Assembly (NCBI RefSeq): GCF_030323025.1
Contig: NZ_CP097329.1
Span: 3,644,001 to 3,708,000, forward strand
Reading direction: 5' to 3'
Source of the DNA: Pseudanabaena mucicola str. Chao 1806
Lineage (GTDB): Bacteria > Cyanobacteriota > Cyanobacteriia > Pseudanabaenales > Pseudanabaenaceae
DNA length: 64,000 nt
Shown one piece after another: positions 1,836 through 32,937 of the stretch (positions within the stretch are counted from its first letter, which is position 1; each line of letters opens with the position of its first letter). The notes beneath the pieces are model-generated. The model saw only the letters and a list, made by a program, of their open reading frames with translations, was not told where the DNA came from and did not search any database. The translations under genes were made by a program, and so were the position numbers.

Positions 1836-3710
1836 TTAATTTAAGCCATAGAAGGCGGCAAAACCAATCAGAATCAGACCAATTAAGATTGTTAAAATAT
1901 ATTGTTGTAATCTTCCTGTCACTGTATATTTCAGACTCTCGCCACTCAAAATGGAAGCAAAGCCCAAAAAGTTTACGGAGCCATCAACTAAATAGCGATC
2001 AATCCAAGCGAGAAGTTTGGAACCGCCACCAACAATTAGAACTACTGTATATTTGTAAATTGCCTGTACATATAAGTCGTAAGCAAGCAAATCCTGCACA
2101 GCCTTCCATGTACTGCGAACAAACCTAGGAGGCATGGGCACAGAGCTTACGGTTGAGAAATAGGGTTTGATGTAGATATATGCGCCTACGCCAAAGCCAA
2201 GTAAGCCTGAAGATGAGAGTATAGTTGTACCCCAGATATCAACTGTATCTAAGTCAATATCTACAAATTCCCAAGATGGTAGGAGAATTGGCACAAGCAG
2301 CGTAATAATCGTCAGTCCTACGAGGGGAAGAGCGACCTGCCAAGCTACTTCGGCTGCACGCCGAGTTTTCTGCTGCGTTGGTCCTAAGAAGACGAGTGCA
2401 AAAATTCGTATTAATCCAAAGGCCGTAATGCAGTTAACTAATAAGGCGATCGCAATTAGCCATGGGTCACTATTCCAAAAAGTTTCTTCCCACCGAAGGA
2501 GTGTCCAAAATCCGCCAAAGGGCAATAGGGCAACCAGACTAAGGGAACCAACGATAAAGGAAACTAAAGTAGCAGGCATACGTGTTTTCAGCCCACCCAT
2601 TTCCGTAAGATCCTGTGTTATTGTCGTCATCATTACTGCGCCAGAACTGAGGAATAGCAAGGACTTGCTGATGCCATGACTAAAGAGCAATCCTAAGGCG
2701 AGATCAGGCTGCTGCATACCTACAGCGATGAAGACTAAACCTAAATATGCACTCGTGGAGTGGGACAGGGCGCGTTTGAGGTCGATTTGGGCGATCGCCA
2801 CTAAACTTGCACCGACAGCCGTAATTGCGCCAATAATTACTGAAACTTCAGCCGCCACAGGAAATAGTGATAAAACTGGCTGAAGCTTAATCAGAACATA
2901 GGCTCCTGTTCCTACAACCACTGAATTTCGCAAAATCGAAGCGGGGTTGGGTCCCTCCATTGCCTCATCTAGCCAGAGGTGTAAAGGGAACTGGGCGCAT
3001 TTACCAAGGGGACCTGCTATTAGAGCTAATCCTAATAAAGTACCGAATTGTTGATGTTCTGAGAAATAGGCGATCGTCTGTGGATTTGCCGCCCATTCCT
3101 TTAAATCAGAGAAATTTAAGCTACCAGTTAAGTTAGACAGTGCTACCACACCCATTAATAGGAATAGGTCGCCAACCCGTTTTGTCCAAAAAGCATCTCG
3201 GGCTGCTGTCACGACGAGTGGCTGTGCGTACCAGAAACCCACTAGTAAATAGGTGGACAGGGTGAGCATTTCCAGCAATGCGTAACTAAAAAAGAGCGAG
3301 TCACTAAAGGCAATACCTGTAATTGCTGCCTCAAAGAAACCAATTAAGGCACAAAATCTCGCGATCGCCCAATCAGTTTCCAGTGATCCTAGTCCATAGA
3401 CCTGTGAAATTAAGCTCATTGTGGCGATCATTACCGATGCGCCCACACTAATTGGAGAAATATCAATGGCAAAAACAAGATTTAAATCAAAGGCTTGAAA
3501 CCAACTAAACTCAACCTGTTGAGCTGCTTTGCCCCAGATCGATGTCAGTAACCAACAACTATGCACTAAGGCTAGTACAGTCATCAATATATTTAGGTAA
3601 GCCGCAGGACGTGGCCCCGTGCGCCGCACCAACCTCAGCGACCAAGGTAAGGTGATTCCTGCGCCCAGCAAACCATAGCAAGGAAGTAGCCAAGCTGTTT
3701 CTAGGATCAT
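1836..3710 (-). CDS. ndhF: NAD(P)H-quinone oxidoreductase subunit 5 (NdhF3/NdhF4 type)
   Basis: Antiporter-like distal subunit of NDH-1. The 624-residue protein is multi-helical, with an early RLVRRTGPRPAAYLN segment characteristic of the CO2-uptake NdhF3/NdhF4 group and a core GKCAQFPLHLWLDEAMEGP (near residue 235) containing the conserved Lys. Its length fits the NdhF3/F4 class (about 610-625 residues) better than respiratory NdhF1 (about 670-690). ATG at 3708-3710. It is the first gene of an ndhF-ndhD unit. By family knowledge the product partners a Cup protein to hydrate CO2 at the thylakoid; that role is inferred from the gene pair and length. Confidence 0.9.
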   Translation of the reverse strand: MILETAWLLPCYGLLGAGITLPWSLRLVRRTGPRPAAYLNILMTVLALVHSCWLLTSIWGKAAQQVEFSWFQAFDLNLVFAIDISPISVGASVMIATMSLISQVYGLGSLETDWAIARFCALIGFFEAAITGIAFSDSLFFSYALLEMLTLSTYLLVGFWYAQPLVVTAARDAFWTKRVGDLFLLMGVVALSNLTGSLNFSDLKEWAANPQTIAYFSEHQQFGTLLGLALIAGPLGKCAQFPLHLWLDEAMEGPNPASILRNSVVVGTGAYVLIKLQPVLSLFPVAAEVSVIIGAITAVGASLVAIAQIDLKRALSHSTSAYLGLVFIAVGMQQPDLALGLLFSHGISKSLLFLSSGAVMMTTITQDLTEMGGLKTRMPATLVSFIVGSLSLVALLPFGGFWTLLRWEETFWNSDPWLIAIALLVNCITAFGLIRIFALVFLGPTQQKTRRAAEVAWQVALPLVGLTIITLLVPILLPSWEFVDIDLDTVDIWGTTILSSSGLLGFGVGAYIYIKPYFSTVSSVPMPPRFVRSTWKAVQDLLAYDLYVQAIYKYTVVLIVGGGSKLLAWIDRYLVDGSVNFLGFASILSGESLKYTVTGRLQQYILTILIGLILIGFAAFYGLN

Positions 3711-21856: not shown

Positions 21857-21885
21857 CAGAATCAAAATCCTTGCTTAGCTATATT

Positions 21886-21966
21886 GGTAGTGCTGCAAAG
21901 TAATTTTTTTTGTAATTGTGTTGCGGGCGCGAATCGCCCGTAACACAATTACATTGCATGACTACC
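21886..21966 (+). repeat. MITE-like repeat family A, copy 2
   Basis: Runs from GGTAGTGCTGCAAAG to CATTGCATGACTACC with the central TTGCGGGCGCGAATCGCCCG hairpin. The right-hand 18 bp overlap the FHA gene and encode its last codons and stop. Confidence 0.88.
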
Positions 21967-22560: not shown

Positions 22561-23643
22561 ATGACAACTATTACTATTGTTGGCTGTGGGGTGATTGGAG
22601 CCTCAATCGCCTATGAACTAAGTAAAGAATTGCAGGCAAAGGCTCTTGATATAAATGTGATTGAGGTGACTAGTCAGCCTGCTATGGGAGCTACGGGTGC
22701 TTCGTTAGGCGTTTTGATGTCGGCTTGCAGTGCCAAGGCAAAAGGGGATTTGGTCAAATTACGTTTGGCTAGCTTAAGTAAGTACGATCGCTTGATTTGC
22801 GAGTTGACTGCTCAAACTCAGCATGATCTTCTCTACAATCGTCATGGCATATTGAGTTTGTATCGATCGCCTGATGCTGAAATGAAAGCGCGATCACTGA
22901 TTGAAATTCGCCAAGAACAGGGATTTGAGTTGCAATGGTTAGGGAAAGATCAAATTGCTGAGCAATTCCCGCTATGGCTAACGGATGGTGGCTTACTTAG
23001 TCCCTGTGATCGCGGCTTACATCCTCGCAAGTTTACCCAAGCTCTGGTGGATGCAGCTATGCAAAATGGGGTGAAGTTTCAGTGGAATACATCGGTGCAG
23101 AAACTAGAGGAGCTATCTAGCGATCGCCTTGTGATTACAGCAGGTCTTGGTTCTAATGCTCTCATTGCGCCATTATTAAGAGATCAGACCCAAGATTTAC
23201 TGCAACCAGTTGGTGGTCAAGCTCTACGGGTAAAAGTCCCAAACCTCAATCTCAAAACGATTGTTCATGCTGAAAATGAAGATGGTTCAGATATTAATAT
23301 TGTGCCTCTTGGAGATGATCAATATTGGCTTGGTGCAACCGTCGAATTTGAGTATGAGCTATTGCCACGTGAGGAGAATATTGCCTTGTTGTTAGCACAG
23401 GCGATCGCATGGTGTCCTGCTTTTGCTAATGCGGAAGTCCTAGAAACATGGTCAGGGGAACGTCCTAGACCACAAGGAACTAGAGCACCTATTCTAGGTT
23501 TTGTCCCCAATCATCCCCAGATGTTGATCGCCACTGGGCATTATCGCAATGGGGTGATGATGGCTCCTGTCACTGCTCAAATTACCAAAGATTTGCTCTT
23601 AACTGGCAAAAGCGATTTACCTTGGCAACCTTTTTCACTGTAG
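22561..23643 (+). CDS. FAD-dependent amine/amino-acid oxidase (glycine oxidase ThiO-like)
   Basis: DAO-family flavoenzyme. The Rossmann motif GCGVIGASIAYEL is at residues 8-20, an ATGASLG FAD-contact segment near 47, and a C-terminal WSGERPRPQGTRAPILG and GHYRNGVMMAP region as in ThiO. ThiO-type glycine oxidase supplies the glyoxylate imine for thiazole synthesis; no thiG is adjacent here, so the substrate is inferred. 360 residues is normal. Its 3' end overlaps that of crtD by nine bases, tail to tail. Confidence 0.78.
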   Translation: MTTITIVGCGVIGASIAYELSKELQAKALDINVIEVTSQPAMGATGASLGVLMSACSAKAKGDLVKLRLASLSKYDRLICELTAQTQHDLLYNRHGILSLYRSPDAEMKARSLIEIRQEQGFELQWLGKDQIAEQFPLWLTDGGLLSPCDRGLHPRKFTQALVDAAMQNGVKFQWNTSVQKLEELSSDRLVITAGLGSNALIAPLLRDQTQDLLQPVGGQALRVKVPNLNLKTIVHAENEDGSDINIVPLGDDQYWLGATVEFEYELLPREENIALLLAQAIAWCPAFANAEVLETWSGERPRPQGTRAPILGFVPNHPQMLIATGHYRNGVMMAPVTAQITKDLLLTGKSDLPWQPFSL

Positions 23644-25137
23644 CTGCACTATTTGTCTGACCACAGTTAGTGCTGAATAACTTACCCCTGCGGTTCCTTC
23701 CCCTGGATGCGTGGAGTCGCCAACTAGCCAAATATTTTTGAGGGGAGTGCGGTTGGCAAAACCAAAAGGACCAAAGGTAGAGACACGCATTCCTACACCT
23801 CCAACGATGCCGCGATCTCGTCCTGTATATCGTTCAAAAGTTTGTGGAGTTGCGGATTCTATATGAATTATAGTTTGCTCATTCAGATGAAAATATGCAC
23901 TCAGTTGAGCGATCGCTCGTTCTGTAAATTTCTGCTTGAGCATAAAATAGTCATCATCGCCATCCCAAATTTCTAAATTTGTAAATTCGGAAGCAATGAT
24001 TGTTGCCTTACCTTCAGGGGCGCGTCCATCCCCTTGCTTACTCACTGAGACAAATAGAGAATGAGGTTTATCAATAGGGGAGCTTTCATATGCTTCTAGA
24101 AACTGCAAATGTGGTGGGCAGTCTTCGGGAATTGCAGCACGATCTACTCCCAAATAGACCACAAAAGCAACGGAAGCAGGTTTGAGATTCTTCACTCGCT
24201 GAATATAGCTCTGAGGTATCGCATCGCCTAAGAGTTGCACAAAATTATTCACTGTCACATTAGCCACCACATGATCTGCTTCATCCCAGAAAGTTTCTGA
24301 TGTTCTGAGGCTTTCGACCTTTACCTTTTTGCTTTTTCCTTTTTCCTTAATCTCACTAATCCGATGCTGCATTAATACCTTCCCTCCATCTCGCTCAATA
24401 CTGGCAATCAGGCGATCGCTCAATACCTGCATACTGCCTTGAAGATGGAATAGACCTAAAGGAGTTTGAGAAACTGCTAGCGCGGTTGCAGCATAGAGTA
24501 AAGCTGTCTCTTCGGCGTTGACCTGTGAATAGAGTTTTAACTGTAAATCGAGAAAGGTGCGTAATCTTTGGTCATTGGCTAATCCAAAGCCACGCAAGGC
24601 ATCACCCACTGTCGAAAAGGTATAGGGGACTGTTGCTAAGGTGTCAATGCGTAAGGCTTTAATTAACTGCCATGTATCCCATAGATTGCGTGGTGGCAAA
24701 ATGGGATCACGGCTCTGGAAGCGCCAACTCCGCCAAAATAAATCTTCGAGAAACTGCCAAAATGGTTCGCTATTCGGAAATTGTCTTTGACGCTCGTGTT
24801 GCCACTTTTGGCGATCGCGCCAGACATTAATCGGTTCGCTTTCATTAGGCAGAAATACGGCACAGGCTGGATCGCAATGGGTTGCTTCGGGAAGTTCAAT
24901 TTCTAATTCGCGAAAAATGCGATCATGAATGCCCCCAGATTCTAATCCTGCTACCTGCGTTGCACCGACATCAAAAGTAAAGCCTCTTCGCTTAAATGTT
25001 GATGCACAACCTCCTGCAACTAGGGCTAGATCGTAAACAATTACTTCGTAACCACGCTTTGCCAATAAAGCGGCTGCCGTTAAGCCACCGATGCCCGCCC
25101 CGACTACAATTATTTTCTGTTGATTTTTACTAAGCAC
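23635..25137 (-). CDS. crtD: Carotenoid C-3',4' desaturase CrtD-like (CrtI/CrtISO family)
   Basis: Phytoene-desaturase-type FAD enzyme of 500 residues. N-terminal dinucleotide motif VVGAGIGGLTAAALLAKRG (residues 11-29) followed by GGCASTFKRRGFTFDVGATQ; C-terminal WLVGDSTHPGEGTAGVSYS (FAD-binding motif GDSxxPGxG). The overall pattern fits the cyanobacterial CrtD group that introduces the 3',4' double bond of myxol-type carotenoids, more than CrtISO; that choice is from memory of the families. Start GTG at 25135-25137. ThiO-like gene is convergent with it. Confidence 0.72.
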   Translation of the reverse strand: MLSKNQQKIIVVGAGIGGLTAAALLAKRGYEVIVYDLALVAGGCASTFKRRGFTFDVGATQVAGLESGGIHDRIFRELEIELPEATHCDPACAVFLPNESEPINVWRDRQKWQHERQRQFPNSEPFWQFLEDLFWRSWRFQSRDPILPPRNLWDTWQLIKALRIDTLATVPYTFSTVGDALRGFGLANDQRLRTFLDLQLKLYSQVNAEETALLYAATALAVSQTPLGLFHLQGSMQVLSDRLIASIERDGGKVLMQHRISEIKEKGKSKKVKVESLRTSETFWDEADHVVANVTVNNFVQLLGDAIPQSYIQRVKNLKPASVAFVVYLGVDRAAIPEDCPPHLQFLEAYESSPIDKPHSLFVSVSKQGDGRAPEGKATIIASEFTNLEIWDGDDDYFMLKQKFTERAIAQLSAYFHLNEQTIIHIESATPQTFERYTGRDRGIVGGVGMRVSTFGPFGFANRTPLKNIWLVGDSTHPGEGTAGVSYSALTVVRQIVQLQ

Positions 25138-25223
25138 GTGCGATCGCTTGATTGATAAGTCCTTACCTAGTTTAAGCGATCGGCATATGATTCTAGATCT
25201 ATCTAAGTGGAGGGTTTCAAGGA

Positions 25224-26137
25224 TTATTCGTCAGCAAAAAAGTCTGAATCAATTTTTTTAACTTCATACTGTGAAATGACTGATACGCCTAAATTATAAT
25301 CAATCATATATTGCGTTAATTGTTCACCGTCTAATAACACAATTTTAGTATCTTTCATGTTGTTGGCATATTCTTGAGCTTCTCTTGAAAAACTAGAAGT
25401 TGTTATAAATACGCCTTTTTTTGCACCCTGACCCGCTAATGCGCCAACAAACTTTTGAATTTCAGGACGACCAACCGTTCCCTCCCATTTTTTAGCTTGG
25501 ATGTAAATTGCATCTAACCCAAGACGATCTTCTTTAATAATTCCATCAATACCTTCATCACCACTTCTACCAATAGCTTTTCCTGCATCTTGGATAGATC
25601 CACCATAGCCCATTTTGACCAATAGTTTCACCACTAATCGTTCAAAAAAGTCAGGTGAACATTCTTTCACAAGAGTCAACAGATCTTGAGCTAAAGCTAA
25701 CTTCAACTTCTGGTAAGCGGAAGCTAAAGCCTCTTCTGGAGTGATTTGTTCAGTCAAATTGTCTTGCGGGGCTAAACTAGAATTCCCAGATGTATTAGCA
25801 CCAGCAAATGACACATATTCAGGAAACTGCTTAAGAAATTTGGCATTAATTTCTGACGGATTATTTCTAAGGACTTCTTTGCCACGATCTGTAATTTGAA
25901 AGATTGCACGGCGTGGAGATTCTAATAATCCTGCTTTTATCAAATGTGTTTTTGTCCAACCAACACGATTATCAAAGGTAGGTTGTTGTCCGCTAGGGAG
26001 TAACTCTTTCCTGTCATCATCAGACAGTTAAACAACTTTGCTAAATATTCCACACTATCTCTAAAAGAATGCTCTTTCCCATCGCTAGCCAGTTGCATTA
26101 ATGGAAGCATAATTGATTGAAAATCTGGAATTGACAT
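25224..26137 (-). pseudogene. mrr: Mrr-type restriction endonuclease, single-base frameshift
   Basis: Type IV restriction enzyme family. The N-terminal Mrr winged-helix domain starts MSIPDFQSIMLPLMQLASDG at 26137; after AKLFN the frame breaks near 26027-26030. Reading one base shifted restores LSDDDRKELLPSGQQPTF..NRVGWTKTHLIKAGLLESPRR, which runs into the catalytic domain with DEGIDGIIKED, IYIQAKKWEG (D..QxK nuclease core) and FITTSSFSREA. One missing base in AA(n)CTG explains the break. Downstream reading could begin at the ATG 25943, giving a separate nuclease domain of 239 residues. A sequencing error is an alternative to a real mutation. Confidence 0.82.
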
Positions 26138-26222
26138 TTTGAGGAGATATTATGATAATTAAATGAATTAATCAAGACATAGTATATAGATTAAATCTGT
26201 CCATATTCCAATAAGATGATTC

Positions 26223-26266
26223 TTAAAATAATCAGAATGTGTACTTATCTAAGAGTAAGCGCAATT
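26223..26266 (+). repeat. Direct repeat of the YoeB-type toxin 3' end (upstream copy)
   Basis: TTAAAATAATCAG, ATGTG and AGTAAGCGC occur in the same order and near-equal spacing as at 28529-28572, where they encode the end of the toxin (KIIRMWTHYE and stop) and its 3' flank. By eye about 36 of 44 positions match. Here a single extra base breaks the toxin frame. The two copies bracket the ATPase/TOPRIM/antitoxin/toxin genes. Confidence 0.75.
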
Positions 26267-26309
26267 ATTTTACTGAGCTTATTTAAAAATCATGGCGTGA
26301 TCGCTGATC

Positions 26310-26328
26310 TTGTAAAATACTTTTACAA
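26310..26328. promoter_or_regulatory. Operator-like palindrome upstream of the ATPase gene
   Basis: TTGTAAAA-TAC-TTTTACAA is a perfect 8-bp inverted repeat, 30 bp before the ATPase start codon. Position and symmetry suit a repressor site or a promoter-overlapping operator for the four-gene unit. No binding protein is assigned. Confidence 0.45.
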
Positions 26329-26358
26329 TACTCAATCAAGCTCATTGGAATAGTTTTT

Positions 26359-27537
26359 ATGCTTCAAAGACTCTATGTACATAATTTTAGATGCTTGGAG
26401 AACTTTGAGTTAAATCTAAAGGATCTTCCCTCGTCTCTTCTAATTGGCAAAAATGGTGCAGGTAAATCGACTATTGCTTTCGCTTTAGAAGTATTACAAA
26501 GTATAGGTCGGGGCATTAATAGAGTTAGTCAACTGATACAGGCTAAGGACTTTAATAGTAGTAGATCTGGTGTTCCAATCCGTTTTGAAATAGAAGTATT
26601 ACTTAAAGAGCAATTATATAAGTACATCCTTGCGTTAGAATTATCACCAGAAAATTTCAAAGAAATTCGCGTATTTGAAGAACAATTGTTAGTTGCAGGA
26701 AGTCCAATTTACTCTCGTGAAGCATCCCAAGTCAAACTTTATGGTAACAATCTCCAATCTCAGACATCTCAAGACAATCGATCTGCTAATCCATTTTCTA
26801 ACCAATTCCCATTAGCTAGTCAATTGATGGCTTCTCAATTTCAAGTAGATTGGCATCTTGTCGCGCTTCCATTAATTCAGGCACAATCAGAGACTGATCC
26901 ACTCTACATTTTCAAGAGTTGGTTATCGCGCATGGTTATTTTAGCTCCGATCCCAAGCTTGATGACAGGAGAATCTAGTGGTGAGACTCTGGAACCAAAG
27001 CGGGATGGATCAAATTTTGGGGAATGGTTCTCTGGTTTACTTAGGCGCTACCCTGCCGCTTATACACAGGTTGATAGATATCTTCGAGAAGTTATGCCCG
27101 ATATTCAGGACATCCAAAATGAACCGATTGGCAAAGATGCTAAAAGTATGGTTGTTCAGTTTGAAGCCAATAATCAAACATTGAGTCTTGATTTTAAAGA
27201 ATTATCGGATGGAGAAAAATGTTTTTTCCTCTGTGCTGTCGTCCTAGCAGCCAACAAGTACTACAGCCCTTTTTGCTTTTGGGATGAGCCTGATAATTAT
27301 CTTTCTCTATCAGAAGTCGGACATTTTGTCACAGCTTTACGGCGCTCATTTAAGAATAGTGGACAGATTTTAGTAACTTCACATAATGAAGAAGCAATCC
27401 GCAAGTTTTCCAATGAGAACACCTTTATACTTGACCGCAAAAGCCATCTAGAACCAACCTTGATAAGATTACTTAGTGACATACCTATTAATGGGGATCT
27501 AGTAGACACCTTAATTCGTGGCGACATAGAATTATGA
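26359..27537 (+). CDS. ABC/SMC-type AAA ATPase of a candidate defence pair
   Basis: A 392-residue RecF/OLD-like ATPase. Walker A GKNGAGKST (30-38) follows the LYVHNFRCLENFELNL opening of this class; the signature SDGEK is at 283-287, Walker B FWDEPD at 307-312 and the switch His at 342 (VTSHNEE). About 200 residues between the motifs form an insertion with no recognisable fold. No TOPRIM domain is fused, unlike OLD or GajA; instead the next gene, overlapping by 4 bp (ATGA), encodes a TOPRIM-like protein. By analogy with ATPase/TOPRIM anti-phage pairs it may sense or clamp DNA and gate the partner. Function is inferred. Confidence 0.82.
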   Translation: MLQRLYVHNFRCLENFELNLKDLPSSLLIGKNGAGKSTIAFALEVLQSIGRGINRVSQLIQAKDFNSSRSGVPIRFEIEVLLKEQLYKYILALELSPENFKEIRVFEEQLLVAGSPIYSREASQVKLYGNNLQSQTSQDNRSANPFSNQFPLASQLMASQFQVDWHLVALPLIQAQSETDPLYIFKSWLSRMVILAPIPSLMTGESSGETLEPKRDGSNFGEWFSGLLRRYPAAYTQVDRYLREVMPDIQDIQNEPIGKDAKSMVVQFEANNQTLSLDFKELSDGEKCFFLCAVVLAANKYYSPFCFWDEPDNYLSLSEVGHFVTALRRSFKNSGQILVTSHNEEAIRKFSNENTFILDRKSHLEPTLIRLLSDIPINGDLVDTLIRGDIEL

Positions 27538-28052
27538 GAGTAAACAAGTTTGTAGAGCATATTCTTGTGCTGCCTGAAGATGATGCTAATCGCCAAATTG
27601 TCAATGGATTTATTCTTAACTTAAGCGTTAATGCAACTGCTATTCAAGTCTTACCGATCGCTAATGGTTGGAAAAAAGTGGTAGATAAATTCAAGAATGA
27701 TCATGTCTCTGAGATGGAAAAATTACCAAAGAGAATGATTGTCTTAGTTATTGACTTTGATGACTATAAGAAACCAGATGGATTAAATTATGAAAATCGA
27801 TTAAGTTATGTCAGGAGCCAAATTCCTAACAATTTGTCAGAAAGGGTATTTATTCTTGGATCTCGGACTGCACCCGAAGATCTTAAGAGTGATATAAAAA
27901 AGAGTTTTGAAGAAATTGGCGAAGATCTTGCTAAAGATTGTCCCAAAGACACGAGTAAAATATGGGAGCATCGTCTTCTTAAACATAATGAAAATGAGCT
28001 AAAGCGTATACGAAAAGCGGTCAAATTATTTTTGTTTAATGACAAATTATAG
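27534..28052 (+). CDS. TOPRIM-like protein, partner of the upstream ATPase
   Basis: A 172-residue protein. The predicted order beta-alpha-beta-alpha-beta with an acidic turn (HILVLPEDDANRQIV, residues 9-23) and a DxD strand end (VLVIDFDDY, near residue 80) fits a TOPRIM fold, in which the Glu and the two Asp bind metal. A third strand RVFILGSRTAPEDL and a helical tail follow. I do not recognise an established family name; DUF4276/DUF4435 and RloB-like proteins are the nearest ideas. The start overlaps the ATPase stop (ATGA), implying translational coupling and a joint function. Confidence 0.65.
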   Translation: MRVNKFVEHILVLPEDDANRQIVNGFILNLSVNATAIQVLPIANGWKKVVDKFKNDHVSEMEKLPKRMIVLVIDFDDYKKPDGLNYENRLSYVRSQIPNNLSERVFILGSRTAPEDLKSDIKKSFEEIGEDLAKDCPKDTSKIWEHRLLKHNENELKRIRKAVKLFLFNDKL

Positions 28053-28060
28053 GAGAAAAT

Positions 28061-28303
28061 ATGTCAATTATACCTTTAACCGAAGCTCAAATTAAACTTC
28101 AAGATTTGATCAATGAAGTTTCACAGTCTCATGAACCTGTCATGATTTCAGGAGCCACATCTAATGCTTTCCTAGTCTCTGAAGAAGATTGGAAGGGAAT
28201 TCAAGAAACAATCTATTTACTCTCAATTCCTAATGTAGGCGCATCAATTGTAGAAGGTTTAGCAACTCCCATTAGTGAATGTAGCGAGACACTAGAATGG
28301 TGA
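28061..28303 (+). CDS. Type II antitoxin, Phd/YefM family
   Basis: An 80-residue protein with the Phd/YefM N-terminal fold: IPLTEAQIKLQDLINEVSQ then EPVMISGATSNAFLVSEEDW. The C-terminal third, which in the family wraps around the toxin, is short and acidic. It starts 8 bp after the TOPRIM-like gene with an AGGAG site (about 28050) and overlaps the toxin gene by 7 bp. Such antitoxins usually autorepress; the operator may lie within or upstream of the ATPase gene since no separate promoter is visible. Confidence 0.85.
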   Translation: MSIIPLTEAQIKLQDLINEVSQSHEPVMISGATSNAFLVSEEDWKGIQETIYLLSIPNVGASIVEGLATPISECSETLEW

Positions 28304-28563
28304 AGTGGAAATTGGTATACACAAAGCAAGCTCAAAAGGATGCTAAGAAAATTGCTGCAACTAATCTCAAAGATAAGGTTACTGAACTTTTAGCCATAAT
28401 TCAGGTAAATCCATTCCAAAATCTGCCACCCTATGAAAAGTTGGTTGGTGATTTAGCTGGTGCATATTCCCGCAGAATCAATATCCAGCATCGACTTGTT
28501 TATCAAGTGATCGAATCAGAGCAAACCATTAAAATAATCAGGATGTGGACGCATTACGAGTAA
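28297..28563 (+). CDS. Type II toxin, Txe/YoeB family mRNA interferase
   Basis: An 88-residue RelE-fold endoribonuclease. Family features: WKLVYTKQAQKDAKKI at the start, NPFQNLPPYEKLVGDLAGAYSRRINIQHRLVY (Glu, Arg and the HRLVY strand; segments quoted in part below the length limit) and the C-terminal MWTHYE with the catalytic His-Tyr. All expected catalytic residues seem present, so it is probably active. In the family it cleaves mRNA at the ribosomal A site. It ends the four-gene unit; its 3' end is repeated at 26223-26266. Confidence 0.88.
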   Translation: MVKWKLVYTKQAQKDAKKIAATNLKDKVTELLAIIQVNPFQNLPPYEKLVGDLAGAYSRRINIQHRLVYQVIESEQTIKIIRMWTHYE

Positions 28564-28661
28564 GCGCGATCGCTATAATAGTTAAGCAAGATTGTAGTTA
28601 AAAGCATTACAATTTAACGCACTAGATATATTTGCCAAAAAGCATCTCAAAAGCACCCGTT

Positions 28662-30137
28662 ATGACTGCAACCGCCACCAAGACAACAACCAAAACACAA
28701 TACGAAGCTGTCATTGGACTAGAAACTCACTGTCAGTTGACCACGAACTCCAAGATATTTTGTAACTGTTCAACCCAGTTTGGCGCAACCCCAAATACTA
28801 ATGTTTGCCCTGTTTGTCTCGGAATGCCAGGGGTGTTGCCCGTACTTAACGAAAAAGTTTTGGAATACGCAGTCAAGGCTGGACTAGCACTAAATTGTCA
28901 AATTGCCCCCCATAGCAAATTCGATCGCAAACAATATTTTTATCCCGACCTTCCCAAAAACTATCAAGTCTCTCAATACGACTTGCCGATCGCCGAGCAT
29001 GGTTGGCTAGAAGTTCAATTAGAAGATGGCAGCACGAAGCGCATTGGCATTACTCGTCTGCACATGGAAGAGGATGCAGGCAAGTTAGTCCATGCAGGTA
29101 GTGATCGCCTTTCAGGTTCTAGCCATTCCCTAGTTGATTTCAATCGTACAGGTGTGCCTTTGTGCGAAATTGTTTCGGAACCTGATATGCGATCGGGTGC
29201 AGAAGCGGCTGCCTATGCCCAAGAACTGCGGCGGATTATGCGCTACCTTGGTGTTTGTGATGGCAATATGCAGGAAGGTTCTCTTCGTTGTGATGTAAAT
29301 ATTTCTGTGCGCCCTTTCGGACAAGAGAAGTTCGGCACAAAGGTAGAAATCAAAAACATGAACTCCTTCAATGCCATTCAGAGAGCGATCGATTTTGAAA
29401 TTAATCGCCAAATAGAAGCTATTGAGTCTGGAGAAAAGATTAAGCAGGAAACGCGCCTGTGGGAAGAGAATACTCAACGCACCATCAGTATGCGTTCCAA
29501 GGAAGGAGCCAGTGACTATCGCTATTTCCCTGAGCCTGACTTGATGGCGATCGAGGTTCCACAGTCTAAATTAGAGAAATATCGTTCTGAACTTCCCACC
29601 CTTCCTATGGCACATCGTCATCGTTATCGCGATGAGTTTGGACTGGCTCCCTACGATGCTGCTCTAATTGCCGATGATCGCAGTATTGCAGAATTCTTTG
29701 ATGCGACAATTCTCACGGGAGCAGAACCTAAGCAAGTGTTTAACTGGGTGATGGGTGACATTACCGCTTATCTCAATGAGAATAAGCTCAAGATTGGCGA
29801 TATAGCTCTTACTCCTGCGATTTTAAGCGAAATGATTGCTTTAATCACCAATGGTACGATTAGTAGCAAAATTGCGAAGGATATCTTGCCTGAACTAATA
29901 GTCAAAGGTGGATCGGTCAAAGAACTGGTTGCAGCCAAAGGTTTAACAGTTCTTGCAGGTGCAGAACTAGAGAAAATCATTGACGAGATTATTGCGGCTA
30001 ATCCAAAGGAAGTGGAACAATATAAAGCTGGTAAAACCAAACTCTTAGGATTCTTTGTCGGTCAAACCATGAAGAAAACCCAAGGTCGCGCCGAACCTCA
30101 ATCTACTAATAAATTGATTGCCGATAAATTGGCTTAA
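28662..30137 (+). CDS. gatB: Aspartyl/glutamyl-tRNA(Asn/Gln) amidotransferase subunit B
   Basis: Subunit B of the GatCAB transamidosome, which binds the misacylated tRNA and hosts its phosphorylation. It has YEAVIGLETHCQL at the start, the Zn-site cysteines in IFCNCSTQFG and NVCPVCLGMPG, and HMEEDAGKL, EIVSEPDMRS, KVEIKNMNSF in the core; the C-terminal YqeY-like domain is complete. I start at ATG 28662 (MTATATK); TTG 28632 would add 10 residues. HIP1 reappears just before this gene, marking the return to backbone sequence. Confidence 0.95.
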   Translation: MTATATKTTTKTQYEAVIGLETHCQLTTNSKIFCNCSTQFGATPNTNVCPVCLGMPGVLPVLNEKVLEYAVKAGLALNCQIAPHSKFDRKQYFYPDLPKNYQVSQYDLPIAEHGWLEVQLEDGSTKRIGITRLHMEEDAGKLVHAGSDRLSGSSHSLVDFNRTGVPLCEIVSEPDMRSGAEAAAYAQELRRIMRYLGVCDGNMQEGSLRCDVNISVRPFGQEKFGTKVEIKNMNSFNAIQRAIDFEINRQIEAIESGEKIKQETRLWEENTQRTISMRSKEGASDYRYFPEPDLMAIEVPQSKLEKYRSELPTLPMAHRHRYRDEFGLAPYDAALIADDRSIAEFFDATILTGAEPKQVFNWVMGDITAYLNENKLKIGDIALTPAILSEMIALITNGTISSKIAKDILPELIVKGGSVKELVAAKGLTVLAGAELEKIIDEIIAANPKEVEQYKAGKTKLLGFFVGQTMKKTQGRAEPQSTNKLIADKLA

Positions 30138-30176
30138 CAAAGAAAGGCGGCGCAATGAGCCGCCTTTCTTTGTTAA
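30134..30176 (+). terminator. 18-bp perfect terminator hairpin of gatB
   Basis: TTAACAAAGAAAGGCGGC pairs exactly with GCCGCCTTTCTTTGTTAA around loop GCAATGA; the stem includes the gatB stop codon. Confidence 0.85.
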
Positions 30177-30219
30177 ATTCCTATCTTTGTGCAGGGAATC
30201 TGAAGTAGCAAAAGATATT

Positions 30220-30300
30220 GGTAGTGCTGCAAAGTAATTTTTTTAGTAATTGTGTTGCGGTCGCGAAGCGACCGCAACACAATTACATTGCATGACTACC
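30220..30300 (+). repeat. MITE-like repeat family A, copy 3
   Basis: GGTAGTGCTGCAAAGTAAT to CATTGCATGACTACC. The central arms read TTGCGGTCGC/GCGACCGCAA instead of GGGCGC/GCGCCC, a compensatory change. It directly abuts the IS66 remnant. Confidence 0.9.
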
Positions 30301-30312
30301 CTGTAGAAACGG

Positions 30313-30450
30313 ACTTTTCCCGTTAATGATGGTATCAGTGTCCATGATGGTTTATCTAGTTATGCCAAATATGATTGTAAACATGCTTTGTGCAATGCAC
30401 ATCATCTTCCTTTTGATAACAATCAGGCGGAACGTGATTTACGTATCTGA
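30313..30450 (+). pseudogene. IS66-family transposase remnant, internally deleted
   Basis: One open stretch encodes VNDGISVHDGLSSYAKYDC then KHALCNAHHL, which is the IS66 catalytic region (VHD...YDC.HALCNAHHL), joined directly to PFDNNQAERDLR, the downstream IS66 motif that is normally more than 100 residues away, then a stop at 30448-30450. The intervening sequence and both transposon ends are missing. A dead fragment. Confidence 0.85.
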
Positions 30451-30470
30451 TGTTACGTGGAACAAATATC

Positions 30471-30571
30471 ACCCTCACCCCCCTGCCCCCTCTCCCATCA
30501 AGGGAGAGGGGGAGCTAGACTAATTTCTTGTTCCCCTCTCCCATTAAGGGAGAGGGGCTAGGGGTGAGGGT
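30471..30571. repeat. C-rich/G-rich dispersed palindrome (CCCTCACCCC type)
   Basis: ACCCTCACCCCCCTGCCCC at the left is mirrored by GGGGCTAGGGGTGAGGGT at the right, with two nested CCCTCTCCC-TTAAGGGAGAGGG hairpins. This type is widespread in cyanobacteria. The rest of the spacer 30451-30693 shows nothing recognisable. Confidence 0.75.
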
Positions 30572-30693
30572 CTTAGAAACTTCCACGAAACATCAGTTAA
30601 GCATTTATACTCAGTGCCTAATTGAGATGCTCCCATCATTGCCTAGGCATAATTGCAGCAGTCCATTAGCTCGAACTTCAGAAAACGTGACGA

Positions 30694-32937
30694 TTAAGCA
30701 AATTCAGGTCTGCCCTGTGACATAAAATGCTTTTGCGAACTCATCTCAGGCTCACCATCTTTAGGAACTCTCTGCACATATGTACCATCGGCGTGAAGAT
30801 CCCATGTTTGGCGATTATCCGCTAAGACAATTTCCAGTATCTGCTTTAATTCCTGAACTAGGGATGGCTCCTCCACAGGAGTTATAACTTCTACTCGTGC
30901 ATCCAAATTGCGTGGCATCCAATCAGCACTACCGATATATACTTCTTCACTACCACCATTACTGAAATAGAAAATGCGAGAATGTTCGAGAAAGCGACCA
31001 ATTACACTAATCACCCTGATGCGATCGCTTAATCCCTTCACCCTAGGACGCAAGCAGCATATACCCCGAATAATTAAGTCAACATTTACGCCAACCTGTG
31101 AAGCTTCATACAATGTAGAGATAATTTCGGGATCAACCAGTGAATTCATCTTAGCAATTATGTACGAAGGATATCCCTGCTTTTGATGTTCAATTTCCCG
31201 ATGAATCAATTGCAGAAACCTATCGCGCATATTCACTGGTGCAACTAAAAGCTTGCGATATTCGCGCTGACGGGAATAGCCAGTGAGATAGTTAAACAAA
31301 TCGGTTAAATCTGCCCCTAAGTCATCACGGCAACTAAATATACCGAGATCGCTGTAAAACCTAGCAGTTTTTGGATTGTAATTACCAGTACCGATATGCA
31401 CATAGCGCACAAGATGATCACCTTCCTGACGTACAACCAGAGCTGTTTTCGTATGGGTCTTAAGATTCTTTAATCCATAAACAACATGCACACCTGCATT
31501 TTCCAGTTTCCTTGCCCAGAGGATATTATTCGCCTCATCAAACCTTGCCTTGAGTTCTACCAGCACGGCGACCTGTTTACCATTCTCTGCCGCCCGAATC
31601 AGCGCATGAACAATTGGCGAATCCCCTGAAGTGCGATACAGCGTCTGCTTAATCGCTAATACCTTATGATCATTCGCCGACTCTTCGATAAATCGCTGTA
31701 CTGTCGTCGTAAAAGACTGATAGGGATGATGAACTAAAAAATCTCCTTCTCGAATAATATCAAAGATGTTTCTTTCATTAGACGAATCTTTGAGCCGTGG
31801 ATGAGTTACCGATTTCCAAGGTTGATCTTGATGCTCAGGCAGAGGCAAAAAAGCGAGTGTCATTAAATCTCCCAAACCAATTAGCCCTGGGATATTGTAG
31901 ACATCTGCTTCCGTAATTCCTAATTGCTCAATCAATTTTTGGCGAATGGCAGAGGGAACATCATTAGCAATTTCCATCCTTACTACTGAGCCAAATTTCT
32001 GTTTGCGTAATTCCTCTTGCAATGCTGAGATCAAGTCATCAGCTTCTTCCTCTTCGATGTCTAGCTCCGCATCGCGAGTAATCCGAAATGGATAATAACT
32101 AAGAATCTCCATACCTGGAAATAATGCGTCAAGATTGTGAGCAATAACTTGTTCTAGCGGTACAAATGTATGATCTTTAGTCTCAGGAATTCTTACAAAA
32201 CGGGGTAATACACTGGGTACTTTGACCCGCGCAAAATTTTCTTCACCTGTCTCGCGATCGCTTACCAATACAACTAAATTCAAGCTGAGATTGGAGATAT
32301 AAGGAAATGGATGAGCTGGATCAACTGCCAAAGGAGTAAGTACAGGAAAAAGTTTTTCACGAAAATAAGTTTTTAAATAATGCTGATGCTTCTTATCGAT
32401 TTTTTTATAATCCAGTAGCCTGACCCCCTGCTTATGAAGTTCTGGACGCAATGTATTCTCAAAAAAATCATGCTGCATTGTTACTAACGGCACAAGCGCA
32501 TCCCGAATTGCCAATAACTGCTTATCGGGCTTCAGTCCATCATCGGTGATGATATCAAGTTGCTCGGCAAACCTTTTCTTGACCCCTGCCACTCTCACCA
32601 TAAAGAATTCATCAAGGTTTGTGCTAAAAATGGCACAAAATTTAGCTCGCTCAAGTAATGGAGTCCGCGCATCAATCCCTTCATGTAAAACTCTTTTGTT
32701 AAAGGCAATCCAACTTAATTCACGGTTAAAAAAATATCGTGAACGGTCAATCATCTTGTCTACTTTTTTATGAACTGGATTAATTGGTTGTTCTAGTTCT
32801 AATAAACTGTTATCAGATTTGCCATCAATCTCTGGATTAGCTAAGAATACATCTCCTTCATTAACAGATACTTCTTCAACGGTCTCTCCATTTTTCTTGC
32901 TCAAATCCTTAGTTAAATCTTTTTTAGTTCTAGTCAT
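30694..32937 (-). CDS. ppk1: Polyphosphate kinase 1
   Basis: Makes polyphosphate from ATP. The 747-residue protein has all four PPK1 domains: an N-terminal helical domain with FFNRELSWIAFNKRVLHE, the head domain, then two PLD-like catalytic domains. The phospho-acceptor His is in VRYVHIGTGNYNPKTAR; a second conserved His is in IFDIIREGDFLVHHPYQSF. A charged, Asp/Glu/Lys-rich N-terminal extension of about 60 residues is unusual but common in cyanobacteria. ATG at 32935-32937. Monocistronic. Confidence 0.95.
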   Translation of the reverse strand: MTRTKKDLTKDLSKKNGETVEEVSVNEGDVFLANPEIDGKSDNSLLELEQPINPVHKKVDKMIDRSRYFFNRELSWIAFNKRVLHEGIDARTPLLERAKFCAIFSTNLDEFFMVRVAGVKKRFAEQLDIITDDGLKPDKQLLAIRDALVPLVTMQHDFFENTLRPELHKQGVRLLDYKKIDKKHQHYLKTYFREKLFPVLTPLAVDPAHPFPYISNLSLNLVVLVSDRETGEENFARVKVPSVLPRFVRIPETKDHTFVPLEQVIAHNLDALFPGMEILSYYPFRITRDAELDIEEEEADDLISALQEELRKQKFGSVVRMEIANDVPSAIRQKLIEQLGITEADVYNIPGLIGLGDLMTLAFLPLPEHQDQPWKSVTHPRLKDSSNERNIFDIIREGDFLVHHPYQSFTTTVQRFIEESANDHKVLAIKQTLYRTSGDSPIVHALIRAAENGKQVAVLVELKARFDEANNILWARKLENAGVHVVYGLKNLKTHTKTALVVRQEGDHLVRYVHIGTGNYNPKTARFYSDLGIFSCRDDLGADLTDLFNYLTGYSRQREYRKLLVAPVNMRDRFLQLIHREIEHQKQGYPSYIIAKMNSLVDPEIISTLYEASQVGVNVDLIIRGICCLRPRVKGLSDRIRVISVIGRFLEHSRIFYFSNGGSEEVYIGSADWMPRNLDARVEVITPVEEPSLVQELKQILEIVLADNRQTWDLHADGTYVQRVPKDGEPEMSSQKHFMSQGRPEFA

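What the first reader, a model, noticed from the sequence alone, without database searches (positions are those of the whole stretch)
26359..28563. Four-gene ATPase / TOPRIM-like / antitoxin / toxin unit as a candidate defence system
Seen: an ABC-type ATPase with complete Walker A, signature, Walker B and switch His overlaps (ATGA) a 172-residue protein with an acidic turn plus DxD in a beta-alpha-beta order like TOPRIM. Eight bases later come a Phd/YefM-like antitoxin and a YoeB-like toxin, overlapping by 7 bp. Known: ATPase/TOPRIM pairs (OLD/GajA-type, PARIS-type) and type II TA systems act in phage defence, and an Mrr gene lies alongside. Inference: the four genes may form one abortive-infection module in which the TOPRIM-like nuclease is the effector and the TA pair adds stability or a second trigger. 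The fixed coupling of a TOPRIM-like partner to YoeB is not a combination I know.
Basis: partly seen in the sequence, partly recalled or inferred. Interest (0 to 1): 0.75.

Follow-up and report, generated by a model that had tools for sequence, protein, structure and literature searches.

The report
Split ATPase/TOPRIM pair beside toxin-antitoxin genes
A cyanobacterium carries a two-gene cassette of an ATPase and a nuclease-like protein that resembles known phage-defence pairs and occurs in many bacterial groups; the toxin-antitoxin genes next to it look like a chance neighbour rather than part of the same machine.

Summary
The ATPase (26359-27537) and the 172-residue protein (27534-28052) form a real unit: they stand side by side in 79 of 80 named loci from eight phyla, 73 of the 79 with the 4-base overlap. 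The 172-residue protein has the strand-helix order and conserved acids of a TOPRIM nuclease (E15, D16, D74 in 78 of 78; D76 in 77 of 78). Its top structural row is an OLD nuclease, at a Z tied with unrelated folds. No Pfam, PADLOC or NCBIfam family names it.

The four-gene unit is not supported. The toxin-antitoxin pair accompanies the cassette in 1 of 80 loci, a near-identical Pseudanabaena. Two Pseudanabaena genomes carry that toxin-antitoxin pair beside gatB without the cassette; in one the empty site shows a 1.9-kb difference that ends at the toxin-antitoxin pair.

Best reading: a split OLD-type (PARIS/AbiL-like) defence module; defence itself is inferred. Unexpected: in two lineages the TOPRIM gene looks wholly or partly replaced under a nearly unchanged ATPase.

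The parts
26359..27537 (+). ABC/SMC-type ATPase of the pair (392 aa)
   Evidence: Pfam AAA_21, SMC_N and AAA_15 over cut-off; motifs invariant in 38 homologues; model pLDDT 89, best structural rows retron PtuA, SMC and Rad50 heads, Z about 20-21
26446..26469 (+). Walker A, residues 30-37 GKNGAGKS
   Evidence: sequence; G30, G35, K36 in 78 of 78
27534..28052 (+). 172-aa TOPRIM-like protein of the pair
   Evidence: E15, D16, D74 in 78 of 78 and D76 in 77 of 78; model pLDDT 86, pTM 0.84; top structural row OLD nuclease 6p74, Z 8.0, rmsd 4.5 over 142 residues, tied with unrelated folds
26141..28049 (+). stretch present in the window and absent from the same place in G407 (245 other bases there)
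   Evidence: L192 matches the window at 92.1% up to 26140 and 92.8% from 28050 on
26281..26358 (+). leader of about 78 bp shared with copies of the pair in G193, G395 and G397
   Evidence: no promoter above chance in the scan (8 found, 8.4 expected)
26223..26265 (+). remnant resembling the end of a yoeB gene
   Evidence: 83.7% over 43 bp with 28529-28570; local score 49, highest of 300 shuffles 27
28061..28303 (+). Phd/YefM-like antitoxin, neighbour, not part of the conserved unit
28297..28563 (+). YoeB-like toxin, neighbour, not part of the conserved unit

Best explanation
The finding is a mobile two-gene cassette: an OLD nuclease split into an ABC-type ATPase and a stand-alone TOPRIM protein, made from one message by the ATGA overlap. 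By analogy with PARIS, AbiL and Gabija the ATPase would be the sensor and scaffold that holds the TOPRIM subunit, and an infection signal would free or activate the TOPRIM subunit to cut nucleic acid (tRNA as in AriB, or DNA as in OLD/GajA) by two-metal catalysis with E15 and D74/D76. The Phd/YoeB genes downstream are an independent addiction module that belongs to the gatB locus; the cassette was inserted just in front of it, replacing the stretch that precedes the antitoxin gene elsewhere, so the TA genes may now be read from the cassette's message. Shown: the pair, its conservation, the conserved acids, the independence of the TA genes, patchy presence and frequent decay. Inferred: nuclease activity, complex formation, sensing, defence, the direction of the insertion.
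For: Pair side by side in 79 of 80 named loci (the 80th starts 14 bases before the match), and with the 4-base overlap in 73 of 79 (the start nearest to that overlap was chosen). TOPRIM: b1-a1-b2-a2-b3-a3-b4 then three helices in the model, E15 right after b1, D74xD76 right after b3; Thermus scotoductus OLD is described with metal-A ligands E377/D431/D433 and three extra helices after b4 (PMC7049728, passages); it is the top structural row. The ATPase's best sequence match in the PDB is the same OLD protein, residues 1-46, E 5.2e-5. The TOPRIM profile scores above all 60 shuffles against the C-terminal halves of seven fused ATPase/TOPRIM-like proteins, with E/D, GGW and DxD in register. Closest PADLOC models of the ATPase include AbiLi, AriA and PtuA. 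Accessory behaviour: 27 of 386 genomes of the phylum, 10 of 26 of the genus; 8 of 25 neighbourhoods hold a broken or partial pair; phylum labels in the ATPase tree need repeated changes, at least 3 forced for each of two phyla. Defence pairs of this architecture are reported (PMC10568477 passages; PMC12409363 passages; PMC10440598 passages and section 6).
Against: Foldseek gave no match at E 0.001 or better for the TOPRIM model, and lumazine synthases reach Z 7-7.8 beside OLD at 8.0. Profile comparison gave no convincing link to RloB, DUF4435 or DUF4276, and in the fused-protein test a shuffled decoy outscored the best real protein in hmmsearch. Neighbourhoods are mostly not defence islands: of 130 nearest ORFs no PADLOC model matched more than 3 (first 25 of 92 models shown). 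No relative in phage records or IMG/VR at the sensitivity used and one in plasmids. No assay exists.
Confidence: 0.6

Rival explanations
1. One reading: the four genes are one abortive-infection module, the TA pair adding stability or a second trigger.
For: The TA genes start eight bases behind the TOPRIM gene on the same strand, and the stretch that precedes the antitoxin gene in G407 is absent here, so co-transcription is possible. TA genes or remnants lie by the pair in three further genomes, G395, G072 and G127.
Against: 1 of 80 named loci, same species. The same TA genes without the pair beside gatB in G407 and G386. All 26 genomes of the genus have YoeB-like genes, 6 matches in the window's own genome, so neighbours by chance are not surprising. 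The other TA neighbours are broken, of another subfamily, or on the other strand.
Confidence: 0.06
2. The pair is itself a toxin-antitoxin module: the TOPRIM protein is toxic and the ATPase neutralises it, with abortive infection when neutralisation fails.
For: Two AAA/TOPRIM_OLD pairs were tested as TA pairs in toxicity-neutralisation assays (PMC10440598, passages and Fig. 6 legend). Gene order ATPase first fits an antitoxin-first operon.
Against: In three of 25 neighbourhoods (L039, L047, L050) the ATPase is missing or cut short while the TOPRIM ORF is full length, and L069 of the 80 named loci has a 160-aa ATPase piece with a full TOPRIM ORF; their expression is unknown.
Confidence: 0.2
3. 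A housekeeping ATPase/TOPRIM pair in DNA repair, like RecF with RecR (recalled comparison).
For: The ATPase model matches SMC and Rad50 heads as well as defence ATPases. In several cyanobacteria the pair keeps one chromosomal place among ordinary genes. An archaeal OLD-family ATPase is reported to act in the cell cycle rather than defence (PMC12796447, abstract start in search listings).
Against: Patchy presence, decay in 8 of 25, signs of transfer between phyla and absence from most genomes of the phylum.
Confidence: 0.12
4. The 172-aa protein is a Rossmann-like domain without TOPRIM nuclease activity.
For: Structural Z values tie with lumazine synthase; no TOPRIM family model matches at E 0.001.
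Against: Invariant E after strand 1 and DxD after strand 3 in 77 or more of 78.
Confidence: 0.12

Closest known systems
OLD nucleases, Class 1 (Thermus scotoductus OLD, 6p74)
   Same: ABC ATPase with TOPRIM; same order of strands and helices, no insert 3, three helices after strand 4, E and DxD in the same places
   Different: two genes instead of one chain; sequence link weak; model Z only 8.0
PARIS (AriA/AriB), proposed OLD Class 4
   Same: ATPase and TOPRIM nuclease on separate adjacent genes; AriA model matches the ATPase, 59.6 bits
   Different: TOPRIM partner is 157-174 aa in the full-length members used, no match to DUF4435, which I recall as the AriB family
AbiL (AbiLi/AbiLii)
   Same: best PADLOC model for the ATPase is AbiLi, 80.8 bits; two-gene ATPase/TOPRIM_OLD architecture
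   Different: partner does not match RloB, the family of AbiLii according to PMC10440598
YefM-YoeB toxin-antitoxin
   Same: the two downstream genes are ordinary members
   Different: independent of the pair

Membership tests
OLD-type ATPase/TOPRIM | ABC ATPase with Walker A, signature, Walker B and switch His | tested here: met
OLD-type ATPase/TOPRIM | TOPRIM fold | tested here: inconclusive
   order of strands and helices fits and OLD is the top row, but Z 8.0 is tied with unrelated folds and Foldseek has no match at E 0.001
OLD-type ATPase/TOPRIM | catalytic E and DxD after strands 1 and 3 | tested here: met
   E15 and D74 in 78 of 78, D76 in 77 of 78; strands
OLD-type ATPase/TOPRIM | match to a Pfam OLD-like TOPRIM model | tested here: not met
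   PF24395 matched 1 of 21 members at E 0.081; none of 78 at E 0.1 in the list
OLD Classes 1-3 | ATPase and TOPRIM in one chain | tested here: not met
   separate genes in the window and in the 79 loci where both are visible
PARIS | separate adjacent ATPase and TOPRIM genes | tested here: met
PARIS | AriB-type effector (DUF4435, recalled assignment) | tested here: not met
   no Pfam match; profile score below the shuffle maximum
PARIS | AriA hexamer sensing a phage trigger; tRNA cleavage by AriB | not testable with these tools
   needs biochemistry
AbiL | RloB-type effector | tested here: not met
   no Pfam RloB match; profile score below the shuffle maximum
YefM-YoeB | Phd/YefM antitoxin and YoeB toxin over curated cut-offs | tested here: met
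four-gene ATPase/TOPRIM/TA unit | the four genes together elsewhere | tested here: not met
   1 of 80 named loci, the same species; looser TA neighbours in G395, G072, G127

The most novel reading that the evidence does not exclude
The pair is an unnamed family of split OLD systems in which the TOPRIM effector is an exchangeable allele under a constant ATPase: recombination replaces the effector gene, with or without the end of the ATPase gene, at an unchanged chromosomal place, as expected if phages or anti-defence proteins select for effector diversity.
Probability: 0.35. Interest if true: 0.6.

Novelty: new variant of a known kind. Interest (0 to 1): 0.42.

Why it matters
It adds a family, unnamed in the libraries searched, to the two-gene ATPase/TOPRIM systems. 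Because its TOPRIM protein is little more than the bare domain, it is a simple object for asking what an ATPase does to a separate TOPRIM nuclease. If the allele exchange holds, it would also point to the effector, rather than the sensor, as the part under selection. It also warns that tight gene spacing in one genome is weak evidence for a functional unit: here eight bases separate two modules that occur independently elsewhere.

Tried and rejected
Four-gene unit: rejected. A recurring third gene: among 755 neighbour ORFs of the 80 loci, 18 clusters were present in 4 or more loci, the largest in 8; they were syntenic groups of related cyanobacteria or broad protein families, none a constant companion. 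RNA element: no Rfam match in 23000-31500. Promoters and terminators: not above chance. Membership in RloB, DUF4435, DUF4276: only ORFs passing my length filters were used (11 of 30, 7 of 23 and 13 of 30 loci fetched, after removing duplicates and ORFs outside the length range); RloB and DUF4435 scored below the best of 40 shuffles, DUF4276 slightly above (20.5 v 18.4) but without aligning E15. A coevolving ATPase segment: partial correlation of the ATPase C-part with the TOPRIM identity 0.15 overall and 0.25 in the closer pairs, so no general rule. PHROG link: 6 of 78 TOPRIM proteins match phrog_3940 at E 0.1 or better (best 0.0012), but phrog_5485 and phrog_11320 match 5 each, so this is weak. 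PDB profile search with 78 sequences: best E 0.31, a thioredoxin, no TOPRIM. A retron TOPRIM chain at E 0.44 in the single-sequence search was not upheld by the profile searches. Families not listed in the structural tables (AriB among them) are not excluded by that absence. Print: searches showed no description of this family that I recognised, but I read only listings and the passages named; the ABC ATPase classification PMC7544218 is not held, and it or database supplements may list the family.

Full report
What is there. The window lies in a cyanobacterial genome (G000, one contig of 4.53 Mb) near-identical to a Pseudanabaena MAG (L057). The ATPase matches AAA_21, SMC_N and AAA_15 over cut-off. 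The 172-aa protein matches no Pfam family over its cut-off and no PADLOC or NCBIfam family at E 1; of 78 relatives none reaches E 0.001 in Pfam.

The pair is a unit. A search of 386 genomes of the phylum found 27 with a match, 16 of 142 genera (one, G375, was weak and not upheld by tblastn). A scan of the genome collection found 136 relatives, of which the best 80 were kept. The ATPase stands directly upstream in 79 of 80; the 80th, L106, begins 14 bases before the match. The two genes overlap by four bases in 73 of 79; I picked the start codon nearest to that overlap, which favours it. Record titles name eight phyla among the 77 loci in the ATPase tree; the least number of label changes forced by well-supported branches is 3 for Pseudomonadota and 3 for Thermodesulfobacteriota, which suggests transfer, with the caution that many records are MAG bins.

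The TA pair is not part of it. The window's Phd and YoeB genes occur beside the pair in 1 of 80 loci, L057, at 100% identity. Across 112 neighbourhoods (partly redundant) searched with two TA subfamilies, TA genes also lie near the pair in G395 (Phd with an internal deletion and only the start of yoeB, upstream), and in G072 and G127 (another Phd/YoeB subfamily, opposite strand, the toxin ORF shorter in G127). All 26 genomes of the genus have YoeB-like matches and the window's genome has 6. The decisive case is gatB: YoeB copies 95-99% identical lie beside gatB in G407 and G386, which have no match to the 172-aa protein. In G407 the order is crtO-like, mrr, antitoxin, toxin, gatB; it matches the window at 92% on both sides, and the window has 1,909 bases (26141-28049) where G407 has 245. 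Since other Pseudanabaena genomes hold the pair at another place, sharing flanks with each other, an insertion in the window's lineage is the simplest reading. Upstream of the ATPase, 26223-26265 resembles the end of a yoeB gene (local score 49, highest of 300 shuffles 27), so the cassette probably came from a place that had a TA pair too.

What the 172-aa protein is. The model from 21 sequences (pLDDT 86, pTM 0.84) has the order b-a-b-a-b-a-b followed by three helices. E15 directly follows strand 1 and D74xD76 strand 3; E15, D16, N19 and D74 are invariant in 78 sequences, D76 fails in one, E115 is present in 74 (L081, L106 and L118 were left out as too short). The T. scotoductus OLD paper gives E377, D431, D433 as metal-A ligands, D381, S478, E480 as metal-B, and three extra helices after strand 4 (PMC7049728, passages). 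That protein is the top structural row (Z 8.0, rmsd 4.5 over 142 residues), B. pseudomallei OLD has 7.4 and topoisomerase II chains 5.3-6.5; but lumazine synthases and a designed protein reach 7.0-7.8, and the tool warns that Z under about 8 may be a common arrangement. Foldseek found nothing at E 0.001 in PDB or viral models. A profile of 78 sequences scored 21.7 against the C-termini of seven fused ATPase/TOPRIM-like proteins (best of 60 shuffles 17.8), with the acidic turn, GGW and DxD in register; singly only one of the seven, L301, stood out, and in hmmsearch one decoy outscored it. The label OLD-like for those seven is my reading of their motifs; Pfam named only their ATPase part in the three scanned. 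I take TOPRIM as likely, not proven.

The ATPase. The model from 38 sequences (two of the 40 non-redundant ones, L084 and L121, were left out) has pLDDT 89; retron PtuA, SMC and Rad50 heads match at Z 20-21. By sequence the best solved relative is T. scotoductus OLD, over residues 1-46 only. PADLOC models AbiLi, HEC-01A, PDC-M07A, Mad3, AriA and PtuA match it, none with a partner match.

Behaviour of the cassette. In the genus 10 of 26 genomes have a match, one of them a 30-residue remnant. Of 25 neighbourhoods in the phylum 8 hold a partial or broken pair (L039, L047, L050-L055). In three of them (L039, L047, L050) the TOPRIM ORF is full length while the ATPase is missing or cut, which speaks mildly against an ATPase that is needed to neutralise a toxic TOPRIM protein. 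The nearest neighbours are mostly ordinary genes: among 130 nearest ORFs of up to 600 aa no Pfam family matched more than 8 and no PADLOC model more than 3 (first 25 families shown). So guilt by association is weak for this family. No relative was found in phages (E 0.01) or IMG/VR; one was found in plasmids, on a 1.2-Mb replicon of Kovacikia.

Exchange of the TOPRIM gene. In Microcoleus CAWBG506 (L079) and its relatives the pair sits at one chromosomal place. Against L087, the flanks (mostly 85-98%) and the first 870 or so bases of the ATPase gene (93-97%) are alike, then identity falls to 72-87% over the end of the ATPase and to 73-83% over the TOPRIM gene, and returns to 91-96% downstream; L087 against L097 shows no such fall within the genes. 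In G397 (L210, L062) the ATPase is 92% identical to the window's protein but the TOPRIM protein 60%; against G193 the DNA identity is mostly 88-100% in the ATPase gene and 54-66% in the first 200 columns of the TOPRIM gene, then 80-85%, with a shared flank of 1,376 bp at 94.6% farther upstream. Of 31 pairs of loci with ATPase residues 1-290 at least 93% identical, six have TOPRIM identity of 66% or less, all with L079; two (with L074) lie at 75-76% and 23 at 80% or more. A general coevolving ATPase segment was not found. Faster evolution of one allele is not excluded, but recombination explains the sharp edges better.

Known systems. Two-gene ATPase/TOPRIM systems are known: PARIS is proposed as OLD Class 4 with separate ariA and ariB (PMC10568477, passages); AriB is a TOPRIM tRNase released after AriA senses a trigger (PMC12409363, passages); AAA/TOPRIM_OLD pairs including AbiL-like ones have been treated and tested as TA pairs (PMC10440598, passages and section 6). 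The present pair works most likely along these lines, but it fails the effector-family tests for PARIS (DUF4435, recalled) and AbiL (RloB), so I do not file it as a member of either. It is a new variant of a known kind. Defence is an inference from architecture, patchiness and decay; I put the whole best reading at 0.6.

Noticed in passing
window 25224-26137, minus strand: The mrr gene beside the pair is split over two frames here but is one 304-aa frame in the same-species locus L057; a recent frameshift or a sequencing error.
   Followed up: partly
G000:C1:2718321-2719513 (outside the window; loci L030, L271): The same genome holds a second ATPase/TOPRIM-type neighbour pair: a weak match to the ATPase (E 6.3e-4) 135 bases before a DUF4276 protein.
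   Followed up: no
window 26750-26840 (ATPase residues about 132-160): A low-confidence insert of about 28 residues in the ATPase that most of 78 homologues lack (74 of 78 have gaps there).
   Followed up: no
window 30215-30300: An 86-bp dispersed repeat with a 94% copy in L189 at 3293-3378, which corresponds to about 21881-21966 of the window.
   Followed up: no
whole window: 80 copies of the octamer GCGATCGC (HIP1, recalled name), 1.25 per kb; one lies at the edge of the shared leader of the cassette in G395 and G397.
   Followed up: no
L055 8208-8829 and L033 8918-9476, minus strand: A different Phd/YoeB pair lies downstream of the ATPase/TOPRIM pair (or its remnant) on the opposite strand in G072 and G127.
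   Followed up: partly
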